A program made the translations under genes and the position numbers. A model generated the notes under the pieces. It did not search any database. It saw nothing but the letters and a program-made list of their open reading frames with translations, and was not told the origin of the DNA. 64,000 nucleotides of DNA, taken from contig NC_087072.1 in assembly GCF_026151205.1 (NCBI RefSeq), positions 625,501-689,500 on the forward strand, given 5' to 3'. Below, piece after piece: positions 42,001 through 45,000 of this stretch; the first letter of the stretch is position 1, and every line of letters starts with the position of its first letter. The DNA comes from Bolinopsis microptera (Eukaryota; Ctenophora; Tentaculata; Lobata; Bolinopsidae).

Positions 42001-45000
42001 GAATCTATTAGATATCAAGCTGCCTTGATATTGAGTAAACTAGAAGGAACATCAGAAATTTCCCCATCCAACCTGTTCAAGGAATTTCTTCCTCTCCGAT
42101 CTGCTGAGCAGGGCAACACTTTTATTAACCACTTCTAGGCGACGTTTCTTGTCTTCCTTGATCTTCTTTGGGACGTTCTTGCGATCCACCTCTTGTTGTT
42201 TCATCAGTTCTGCTTCTTCTAGAGCCAGTGTTCTCTTTGTGAATTCTTGCTCCTGTGAAAGTGATAATGTTTAAGCTGTTTTGAAGGTGAAAGTGTAAGA
42301 GAAAGTTGAAGTGAAAGTACAAGTGAAAGGAAATGTTCTAAGCAATCTGTCATTTATAGCAAAACTAGTGTAATGTGGTTGGCCGCCTCTATTTTACACT
42401 TAGATCACCCAGAACTCTGCATACAGAGCAATAAAAGTTAGTGAGAATAAATGAAGCTCTGCCAACAACTTTAACTTGCTAAATTATAATTAGCAAGTTA
42501 AATTTATAGTTATCCGGGTCAACCGTTACTTTATAAAAAATGTTCGTCATTTAACATTATCAGTATCTAAAATAAAACAATTGCGAACCTTTTGATGTTT
42601 AACCCGGTTGTGCTCTTACCTTTTGATGTTTAATCCGGTTGTGCTCTTACCTTTTGATGTTTAATCCGGTTGTGCTCTTACCTTTTGATGTTTAACCCGG
42701 TTGTGCTCTTACCTTTTGATGTTTAACCCGGTTGTGCTCTTACCTTTTGATGTTTAACCCGGTTGTGCTCTTACCTTTTGATGTTTAACCCGGTTGTGCT
42801 CTTACCTTTTGATGTTTAATCCGGTTGTGCTCTTACCTTTTGATGTTTAATCCGGTTGTGCTCTTACCTTTTGATGTTTAATCCGGTTGTGCTCTTACCT
42901 TTTGATGTTTAATCCGGTTGTGCTCTTACCTTTTGATGTTTAACCCGGTTGTGCTCTTACCTTTTGATGTTTAATCCGGTTGTGCTCTTACCTTTTGATG
43001 TTTAACCCGGTTGTGCTCTTACCTTTTGATGTTTAATCCGGTTGTGCTCTTACCTTTTGATGTTTAATCCGGTTGTGCTCTTACCTTTTGATGTTTAACC
43101 CGGTTGTGCTCTTACCTTTTGATGTTTAATCCGGTTGTGCTCTTACCTTTTGATGTTTAATCCGGTTGTGCTCTTACCTTTTGATGTTTAATCCGGTTGT
43201 GCTCTTACCTTTTGATGTTTAATCCGGTTGTGCTCTTACCTTTTGATGTTTAATCCGGTTGTGCTCTTACCTTTTGAAGTTTAATCCGGTTGTGCTCTTA
43301 CCTTTTGATGTTTAATCCGGTTGTGCTCTTACCTTTTGATGTTTAATCCGGTTGTGCTCTTACCTTTTGATGTTTAACCCGGTTGTGCTCTTACCTTTTG
43401 ATGTTTAATCCGGTTGTGCTCTTACCTTTTGATGTTTAACCCGGTTGTGCTCTTACCTTTTGATGTTTAACCCGGTTGTGCTCTTACCTTTTGATGTTTA
43501 ATCCGGTTGTGCTCTTACCTTTTGATGTTTAATCCGGTTGTGCTCTTACCTTTTGATGTTTAACCCGGTTGTGCTCTTACCTTTTGATGTTTAATCCGGT
43601 TGTGCTCTTACCTTTTGATGTTTAATCCGGTTGTGCTCTTACCTTTTGATGTTTAATCCGGTTGTGCTCTTACCTTTTGATGTTTAATCCGGTTGTGCTC
43701 TTACCTTTTGATGTTTAATCCGGTTGTGCTCTTACCTTTTGATGTTTAACCCGGTTGTGCTCTTACCTTTTGATGTTTAACCCGGTTGTGCTCTTACCTT
43801 TTGATGTTTAATCCGGTTGTGCTCTTGCTGCATCTCGAAGTTAACCTTGAGCTGCTCTAATCCCAGATCAAACATTTTGATACAATACGCGGAGTCGATC
43901 TCATAAAGATCCTCCGCCCGCTTTAGAACTATTTCACGGGTTATTTCTATATACTTCAGTTCCAGTTCCAGCATCGACTGCTTCTGTTCCTTGCCTGGAA
44001 AGGGAATTCATTTGGAAAACGTTACACGAAACAACAAAAATCTTAATCATACATCTTAATTAAACTATATTATTAAGAAACTGTTTCCACCATTAAAATA
44101 TTCAAAACCCCTGAAAGAAATCAAGTCATCCTAAAATGGTGATCAGTACAGATCAAGACAGCTAGAGTAAAAATTTGTTTCTCCAAGCAACTCTATCATC
44201 GGCTAATATCTTAAGCTTATTAAGATCATTCAAAGAGTTAAGTTTTAAACCTCTACGGGTCAAATTAAACTATATAGTACATTTGTTTGAGTAAACATTT
44301 GCTGGCACTTCGGGCCAGTCCCCAACAGTCTTATGGTTAAAAAGTAAGACTTTGCTTTACTTACTAAGCTGTTCGTGTAGCTCACAGTGTCTTAATCTTT
44401 GGTCATTCTCAGTTTCAATAGGTTCCAGTTTTGGTTCAATTCCACGCTTCATAGACCTGAATAAATTTACCATATAAAGTAAAACAGTTTTACAGTAAAA
44501 TCTCGTTATTTCCTTCCCTTCAAATTTCCCTTCAAAATTTATATTACTAGAAACATTCATTTTGAAAAAATTTGATTTTTCCTTGTGGCGGAAGACCCTT
44601 TCTAGTTTCTTACCGTCTTGTTACTTTGGCCTGCTTAGCGTGTTCCTTCAGCAACTTTTCTTTCTCTTTCTTCAGAGTTTCCACTAAAGAATTGAACTCA
44701 GCGCCATGCTCTTTTTCTTTCTTTTCTAACTCCTTTTTCCTGGAAACACAAATAGTAAATCACAAGATAAAGAAATGTTGGTCAATATTAAAAAATATGA
44801 AGCCATCCAGGTAATTGTGGTATCAGAAGTAGAAATCTGCCATAAAACATGCTTGGTTTGTACGTTGGTTTGAACTGGAAAATATAAATTTACTTTTGCG
44901 AAATGTTGGAGAGCTTTACCTGTCTTTGTGAGTTTTATCGAGGATTTGGTTGCAAGCCTTGAGGATACCATCCGCTTCAGCTCTCTGAGACTTTATGAGG

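What the first reader, a model, noticed from the sequence alone, without database searches (positions are those of the whole stretch)
42588..43827. A 5' splice site amplified into 40 perfect tandem copies
Seen directly: the 31-bp unit is the last 24 coding bases of a kinase exon plus the first 7 intron bases, repeated 40 times with no indels; 39 copies keep AAAAG|gtaagag. The real donor is the first copy met by the transcript. Using any later copy adds 31n bases and meets a stop soon (...CAACCGGRTTAA in frame). The intron therefore offers dozens of competing, equally strong donors and U1 sites. This could be a splicing buffer, a U1 decoy or an exon-definition device, or simply a replication-slippage array seeded at a splice site. 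The absence of length variation argues for recent expansion or homogenisation.
Basis: partly seen in the sequence, partly recalled or inferred. Interest (0 to 1): 0.85.

Follow-up and report, generated by a model that had tools for sequence, protein, structure and literature searches.

The report
Splice-donor minisatellite ("mirage") in a ctenophore
A short stretch that joins an exon end to its intron start is repeated 40 times in a row inside a kinase gene of what looks like a comb jelly; a second copy of the region has only two repeats, and other genes of the same genome carry similar arrays, so it is most likely an unstable repeat that splicing tolerates rather than a purpose-built device.

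Summary
In detail: 40 head-to-tail 31-bp units, no indels, at 43826..42587 (- strand), each carrying the 5' splice site (donor) position of a coding exon. Units are not all identical (26 A: 14 G at one site, one A>T) and the last copy has a weak donor, GTTCGC. The exon lies in the C-terminal PKK-like part of an SLK/LOK-type gene. A second, inverted copy of the region 0.5 Mb away has exactly two units in the same flanks: a before/after pair pointing to one blunt duplication across the junction, then expansion. Donor 1 keeps the conserved protein; later donors lead to an early stop. It is not a one-off: of 25 donor-bearing arrays inspected genome-wide, 16 start at or beside a coding exon end, by my reading. 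The kind is known: "mirages" of lancelets, and repeats at exon-intron boundaries of human paralogues. Intronic donors are not convincingly conserved (P = 0.25 by columns, 0.017 by cells), so a buffer, decoy or exon-definition role is not supported. Best reading: a neutral mirage whose exon-proximal copy is spliced. No RNA evidence was available.

The parts
42587..43826 (-). tandem array, 40 units of 31 bp; unit AAGAGCACAACCGGRTTAAACATCAAAAGGT (29 exon-derived bases plus GT); preceded by C and followed by T, which fixes the phase of the units
43798..43994 (-). coding exon (E5, 197 nt) whose last 29 bases are the exonic part of unit 1; donor GT at 43797-43796
42253..43797 (-). intron that holds the rest of the array; 1545 bp here, 372 bp at the second locus
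42587..42588 (-). GT of the last copy (GTTCGC), inferred to be the pre-duplication donor; weak U1 pairing (-4.1 against -9.5 kcal/mol for the array donors)
42073..42252 (-). next coding exon (E6)
41708..41947 (-). coding exon E7; at the second locus its acceptor with the first exon bases is triplicated (55-bp unit x 3.1)
44365..45379 (-). upstream coding exons E1 (in part) to E4 with their introns, used to compare the two loci
61373..61601 (-). acceptor-side duplication in the kinase-domain part of the gene: GTGTTTCAG plus about 32 exon bases at 61601-61561 and again at 61413-61373, with a 21-bp array between; the second copy (exon 61404-61297) is the one that reads on
39035..41578 (-). 30-bp minisatellite on the 3' side of E7, about 84 copies with an interruption here, 37 + 96 at the second locus; shows general array instability

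Best explanation
It is a mirage: a minisatellite born from a tandem duplication that straddles an exon-intron boundary. Shown: the array, its fixed phase, the two-unit state at a second locus, few protein changes between the two loci in the exons on both sides, and recurrence of donor arrays at other exon ends in this genome. Inferred: a blunt 31-bp duplication joined the GT of a weak donor (GTTCGC) to the exon bases AAGAG and so made a stronger donor (GTAAGAG); later slippage or unequal exchange grew the array to 40 in this copy; the spliceosome uses the exon-proximal first donor, and units 2-40 are intron sequence under little or no constraint.
For: Two exact units in the same flanks (CAGC ... 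TCGCAATTG) at C1:163874-163935. Copy numbers differ for other arrays too: 33-bp 90.6 against 35.6, 20-bp 15.2 against 7.6, 55-bp acceptor array 1 against 3.1. Exons of the two loci: 20 synonymous and 1 nonsynonymous difference in 1107 nt, Ka/Ks 0.011. Introns differ at 25 of 1278 sites; at half that rate per lineage about 12 changes would be expected in 39 units that had existed since the loci parted (hand estimate), but 2 variant sites are seen, so the array is young or homogenised. The A/G variants are scattered as at random (runs test, P = 0.40). Donor-bearing arrays start at or beside coding exon ends in 16 of 25 inspected. By columns, donor positions are not clearly more conserved than others. 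Reading past donor 1 meets a stop. Lancelet precedents.
Against: No RNA evidence: use of donor 1 is inferred. Weighted by cells, donor positions in exon-end arrays are less variable than other positions (P = 0.017); the arrays other than the window's were found by asking for intact donors, which biases this. The excess of donor arrays over the reversed pattern (2426 places against 40) is larger than my rough random-seeding estimate, though places cluster in few arrays; acceptor arrays show a smaller excess (550 against 150). If the second locus is an allele rather than a duplicate, the dating and the Ka/Ks reading change.
Confidence: 0.85

Rival explanations
1. The many donors are functional: they buffer splicing or act as a U1 decoy or exon-definition device, and are kept by selection.
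For: 39 of 40 copies keep a donor that pairs with this genome's U1 5' end over 7 contiguous bases. Weighted by cells, donor positions vary less than others across 16 exon-end arrays (P = 0.017), and not so in 7 of the 9 other arrays (P = 0.54).
Against: By columns there is no clear difference (10 of 112 against 55 of 502, P = 0.25), and donors decay in the two long arrays L045 (15 of 658 cells) and L054 (7 of 448). The second locus has two units and nearly the same protein. Lancelet mirages are reported not to disturb regular splicing.
Confidence: 0.07
2. The duplication was favoured once because it upgraded a weak donor; the later expansion is neutral. (A variant of the best explanation, not exclusive of it.)
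For: The inferred original donor pairs with U1 at -4.1 kcal/mol, weaker than the six other donors of this gene that I compared (-6.9 to -9.4); the duplicated donor is -9.5. L024 shows the same: last copy -8.1, array copies -13.2.
Against: L014 shows no gain (-10.6 both), and in L022 the first donor is weaker than the later ones (-5.6 against -12.1). The original donor is inferred without an outgroup; it may have decayed after the duplication.
Confidence: 0.2
3. Assembly artefact: the copy number, or the second locus, comes from misassembled or unpurged haplotypes.
For: The published B. microptera assembly was made with wtdbg, gap-closed, purged of haplotigs and polished (PMC10232365, passages), so copy number in arrays may be off. 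The second locus lacks the kinase-domain exon and intron divergence is only 2%.
Against: 1.24 kb is short for long reads (recalled); the second locus has no N in the 20 kb fetched first, no match to the window 5' of it in 14 kb nor in three 3-kb samples beyond it; synonymous divergence is about 10%.
Confidence: 0.07
4. Intron birth by tandem duplication of an AGGT-bearing exon piece (Rogers model), with the array as the new intron.
For: Each unit holds AG|GT and derives from a coding exon end.
Against: After the last unit the intron runs on for 334 bp to a normal acceptor, shared with the second locus; no unit supplies a pyrimidine tract before its AG (CATCAAAAG).
Confidence: 0.03

Closest known systems
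Lancelet 'mirages' (Adh, troponin C, globins BflGb6 and BflGb9; similar repeats in PGBD5)
   Same: Minisatellite-like tandem duplications across exon-intron boundaries, 5' and 3'; copy number differs between haplotypes; many repeats carry AG/GT; reported not to disturb regular splicing (PMC3087553, passages; PMC3902484, passage).
   Different: Different phylum; 40 units here (98 counted in L045) against 6 and 3 in the BflGb6 haplotypes; splicing was tested there by RT-PCR, not here. The founding Adh paper (NAR 2002) is not held; I know it only through these two.
Variable internal tandem repeats at exon-intron boundaries in human segmental duplications
   Same: Units of about 30 bp that differ in number between recent paralogues and touch exon-intron boundaries (PMC2812944, passages).
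   Different: There about 4 copies on average, with many alternative transcripts reported; here 40 copies and, by inference, one product.
Intron gain by tandem duplication of AGGT segments (Rogers model; potato RdRp case)
   Same: Tandem duplication that copies AG|GT (PMC4974935, search listing only).
   Different: Here the intron continues past the array to an ordinary acceptor.

Membership tests
mirage (boundary-spanning minisatellite) | head-to-tail minisatellite array | tested here: met
   40.0 x 31 bp
mirage (boundary-spanning minisatellite) | unit spans a real exon-intron boundary | tested here: met
   unit = last 29 bases of E5 plus GT; E5 joins E6 in frame in a protein that differs at 1 of 369 residues between the two loci
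mirage (boundary-spanning minisatellite) | copy number differs between copies of the locus | tested here: met
   40 against 2 units at two loci; between individuals or haplotypes not tested
mirage (boundary-spanning minisatellite) | regular splicing despite the repeats | not testable with these tools
   no RNA data; inferred from reading frame and Ka/Ks
mirage (boundary-spanning minisatellite) | both 5' and 3' boundaries can be affected | tested here: met
   acceptor duplications at window 61373-61601 and at the second locus
intron gain by AGGT duplication | intron bounded by the two copies of the duplicated exon piece | tested here: not met
   334 bp follow the last unit before the acceptor
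recursive splice sites (zero-length exons) | pyrimidine tract before AG|GT (recalled criterion) | tested here: not met
   CATCAAAAG|GT (CTTCAAAAG in one copy) in the units
SLK/LOK-type kinase gene (host gene) | protein kinase domain and PKK domain | tested here: inconclusive
   Pfam PKK E = 1.9e-4 and Pkinase E = 6.7e-6 on hand-joined exon pieces, both below the curated cut-offs

The most novel reading that the evidence does not exclude
Splice donors are preferred birth sites of minisatellites in this ctenophore genome: many genes (by my rough estimate, dozens) carry arrays seeded at the exon end, perhaps because duplications there can upgrade the donor and are among the few exon-touching duplications that leave the mRNA intact. 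The arrays then act as natural experiments with up to 98 near-identical donors in a row.
Probability: 0.25. Interest if true: 0.6.

Novelty: new member of a known kind. Interest (0 to 1): 0.42.

Why it matters
In the listings I saw (open-licence library, one of them showing 15 of 453 papers) boundary-spanning minisatellites are described for lancelets and, in related form, for human paralogues. Here they appear, and recur, in a genome that matches a ctenophore. The arrays offer a test of an old question, how the spliceosome chooses among near-identical 5' splice sites in a row: 16 exon-end arrays with from 3-4 to about 98 donors, including L022, where the exon-proximal donor pairs less well with U1 than those behind it. 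Public RNA reads of this or a sister species could answer it.

Tried and rejected
Selection on the intronic donors: a first look at 7 exon-end arrays gave 1 of 49 variable donor columns against 24 of 234 others (counted), which looked like conservation. With 16 arrays it became 10 of 112 against 55 of 502 (P = 0.25), and P = 0.017 by weighted cells. Only units of the commonest length were counted there (for example 33 of 48 in the C3 array). The control set was 7 of the 9 other arrays (L044 and L055 left out): 12 of 49 against 25 of 173, P = 0.70 by columns, 0.54 by cells. I treat selection as not shown.

Size of the genome-wide excess: three AGGTAAGW in a row gave 2426 places against 40 for the reversed pattern, CAGGTAAGW 592 against 12, AAGGTAAGTR 311 against 0, GAGGTAAGWB 525 against 6, acceptor TTTYCAGG 550 against 150. 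Places overlap within arrays. Single AGGTAAGW sites number 21152 against 17493. In ten 8-kb samples 4396 of 80000 positions lie in such recurrences (window 6463 of 64000; second locus 3921 of 20000), short-period repeats included. From about 4 clean arrays of period 24-54 per 80 kb, counted by eye, I roughly expect 28 arrays by chance to hold such an 8-mer, against about 100 extrapolated from the listings. The direction is clear, the size is not.

Other negatives: no higher-order structure in the A/G pattern. No Rfam match at gathering scores and no tRNA in the window. let-7 not found, but no control rang. Work on competition between duplicated splice sites (Reed and Maniatis) is recalled only; one search found no paper.

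The 25 arrays: every array shown in the listings (4; 8; 4; 9), the window's included; each listing prints only the first 100 places. The long C2:21866316-21873722 stretch was counted as one and read only at its upstream edge. Not at a coding exon end, or unclear: L013, L015 (a dispersed 32-bp array), L016, L018, L043, L044, L048, L049, L055 (9 of 25). Exon calls were made by eye from open frame and phase. In L021 the array starts about 33 bp inside the intron, and in L022 and L054 the repeated stretch is mostly intronic. L052 and L053 are copies of one another. Pfam: L014 Sushi 0.002, C3 array DHR-2 lobe B 3.8e-24, L024 WD40 (MABP1-WDR62) 7.5e-5, L047 Reprolysin 6.1e-4; L022 weak (0.12); nothing for L017, L021, L023 or L045, L046, L050, L051, L052, L054; L053 was not given to Pfam. 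L027 and L028 were fetched but not examined. In one search, 15 of the 16 were read (not L053); L021 was read in the wrong phase; the other 14 had a stop 1 to 45 bases into the intron, in L045 and L047 just beyond the first unit, so there donor 2 alone gives a frame shift.

Full report
WHAT IS THERE. On the - strand of the window the array runs from 43826 to 42587 and holds exactly 40.0 units of 31 bp without indels. In the only phase that the flanks allow, the unit is AAGAGCACAACCGGRTTAAACATCAAAAGGT: 29 exon-derived bases plus GT. C precedes the first unit and T follows the last. Thirty-nine copies contain AAAAG|GTAAGAG; copy 40 reads AAAAG|GTTCGCA. One site is A in 26 copies and G in 14, and copy 18 has one further change. 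The A/G copies are arranged as at random (runs test P = 0.40).

HOST GENE. The exon at 43994-43798 joins in frame to 42252-42073; seven exons (the first in part) between 45379 and 41708 give 369 codons. Pfam finds PKK (E = 1.9e-4) and, on pieces of exons further 5', Pkinase (E = 6.7e-6), both below the curated cut-offs. I read the gene as an SLK/LOK-type kinase; that name is recalled from domain order. The kinase-domain exon at 61404-61297 has one match in the genome at E <= 1e-5.

ORGANISM. G000 has 264,652,675 bases; contigs C1-C13 hold 258.07 Mb (97.5%), C1 is 26,206,493 bases and C14 is 0.2 Mb. PMC11797021 (passages) lists Bolinopsis microptera with 265 Mb, 13 chromosomes and a largest chromosome of 26.2 Mb; PMC10232365 (passages) gives 13 chromosome-scale scaffolds with 97.23% of the bases. 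The match is strong but rests on sizes only.

BEFORE AND AFTER. The unit pattern occurs elsewhere only at C1:163879-163933, twice. There the same exon, the same flanks and the same following sequence hold exactly two units, C1:163874-163935. This second locus is inverted and matches the window from 49832 to at least 37717. No match to the window was found in C1:145500-159880 or in three 3-kb samples at 180, 192 and 212 kb, and there is no N in the 20 kb first fetched. The kinase-domain exon was not found there. It may be a partial duplicate or, less likely, a left-over allele. Coding sequence differs by 20 synonymous and 1 nonsynonymous change (Ks 0.099, Ka 0.0011), introns at 25 of 1278 sites. 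Ten of the 20 synonymous changes and the nonsynonymous one fall in the first 71 of 369 codons, so the two loci may be a mosaic. Other arrays also differ in copy number: 33-bp 90.6 against 35.6, 20-bp 15.2 against 7.6, 30-bp 84 against 37 + 96, and a 55-bp unit that spans an acceptor, 1 against 3.1.

ORIGIN. From the two-unit state, the simplest ancestor is CAGC-unit-TCGC with donor GTTCGC. A blunt tandem duplication put AAGAG behind the GT and made GTAAGAG. With the U1 5' end read from this genome (ATACTTACCTG), the old donor pairs at -4.1 kcal/mol, the new one at -9.5, and six other donors of the gene at -6.9 to -9.4. This upgrade is inferred and has no outgroup. L024 shows a similar gain (-8.1 to -13.2), L014 none, and L022 the reverse order.

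AGE. At half the intron divergence per lineage, about 12 changes would be expected in 39 units that had existed since the two loci parted (hand estimate). Two variant sites are seen. The array is therefore young or kept uniform by exchange.

RECURRENCE. Genome-wide, three donors (AGGTAAGW) in a row with gaps of 16-46 occur at 2426 places against 40 for the reversed pattern; related patterns behave alike. The 25 arrays shown in these four listings, each cut at its first 100 places, were read at their transcript-upstream edge. Sixteen start at or beside a coding exon end by my reading: the window's, L014 (Sushi), L017, the C3 array L019/L025/L020 (DHR-2 of a DOCK-like gene), L021 (array about 33 bp inside the intron), L022, L023, L024 (WD40), L045 (98 units counted), L046, L047 (ADAM-like), L050, L051, L052, L053 and L054. 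Pfam supports four of these plus the window; the rest rest on open frame and phase. Nine do not, or are unclear. Acceptor-side cases also exist: 61601-61373 in this gene and the 55-bp array at the second locus; the acceptor pattern gives 550 places against 150. Places overlap within arrays, so these ratios overstate the excess: from ten 8-kb samples I roughly expect 28 arrays for such an 8-mer by chance, against about 100 extrapolated from the listings.

DOES IT DO ANYTHING. In 14 arrays read in a phase I trust, translation past the first donor meets a stop 1 to 45 bases into the intron, so later donors would give truncated or shifted products. If the later donors mattered, their bases should change less than the rest of the unit. 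Across 16 exon-end arrays 10 of 112 donor columns vary against 55 of 502 others (P = 0.25); weighted by cells P = 0.017. In 7 of the 9 other arrays the figures are 12 of 49 against 25 of 173 (P = 0.70 and 0.54). Donors decay in the two long arrays L045 (15 of 658 cells) and L054 (7 of 448) (all). I conclude that no role for the later donors is shown; the P of 0.017 is a weak hint for one, which the search for intact donors may have produced.

WHAT IT IS CALLED. [quoted passage not shown] Human recent paralogues carry variable repeats of about 30 bp at exon-intron boundaries (PMC2812944, passages). I saw no report for ctenophores in the listings (open-licence library; one search lists 15 of 453). 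The finding is a new member of a known kind in a distant phylum, of interest mainly because it recurs there and because the arrays are natural tests of 5' splice-site choice.

Noticed in passing
window 61373-61601: An acceptor plus about 32 exon bases is duplicated around a 21-bp array (GTTACCATAGTTACACTA-like) in the kinase-domain part of the same gene.
   Followed up: partly
L001 about 2160-2340 (C1:164.5-164.7 kb): At the second locus an acceptor with its first exon bases is triplicated (55-bp unit x 3.1); the window has one.
   Followed up: partly
window 12695-14265 and 29302-30865: The same short arrays (TTTACCTCAT; TTTCAGGCGCGCGACG) recur about 16.6 kb apart, as an internal segmental duplication would give; 14213-14265 and 14317-14369 are an inverted pair of the 16-bp array.
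   Followed up: no
window 56162-56356: Internal telomere-like (CCCTAA) array of 18 units, flanked by two short 15-bp arrays whose units are reverse complements of each other.
   Followed up: no
L013 (C1:36576-37703) and L015 (C1:761375 on): A 32-bp array (AGGTAAGTACCTGAGTAAAGAGCGCTATCATG) with shared flanking sequence at two places, so it may travel with a dispersed repeat; donor-like but not at an exon.
   Followed up: partly
L052 (C4:11880603-11881002) and L053 (C4:13033932-13034214): The same exon-end donor array at two loci in opposite orientation, 10 and 8 units.
   Followed up: partly
window 45379-44920 against C1:162.4-162.8 kb: Synonymous differences between the two loci crowd into the first 71 of 369 codons (10 of 20), and Ks (0.10) exceeds intron divergence (0.02); perhaps gene conversion over the rest.
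   Followed up: no
L022 (C4:1262426-1262554): The exon-proximal donor (CAA|GTAAGT) pairs with U1 less well than the seven copies behind it (-5.6 against -12.1), yet by frame it should be the one used.
   Followed up: no
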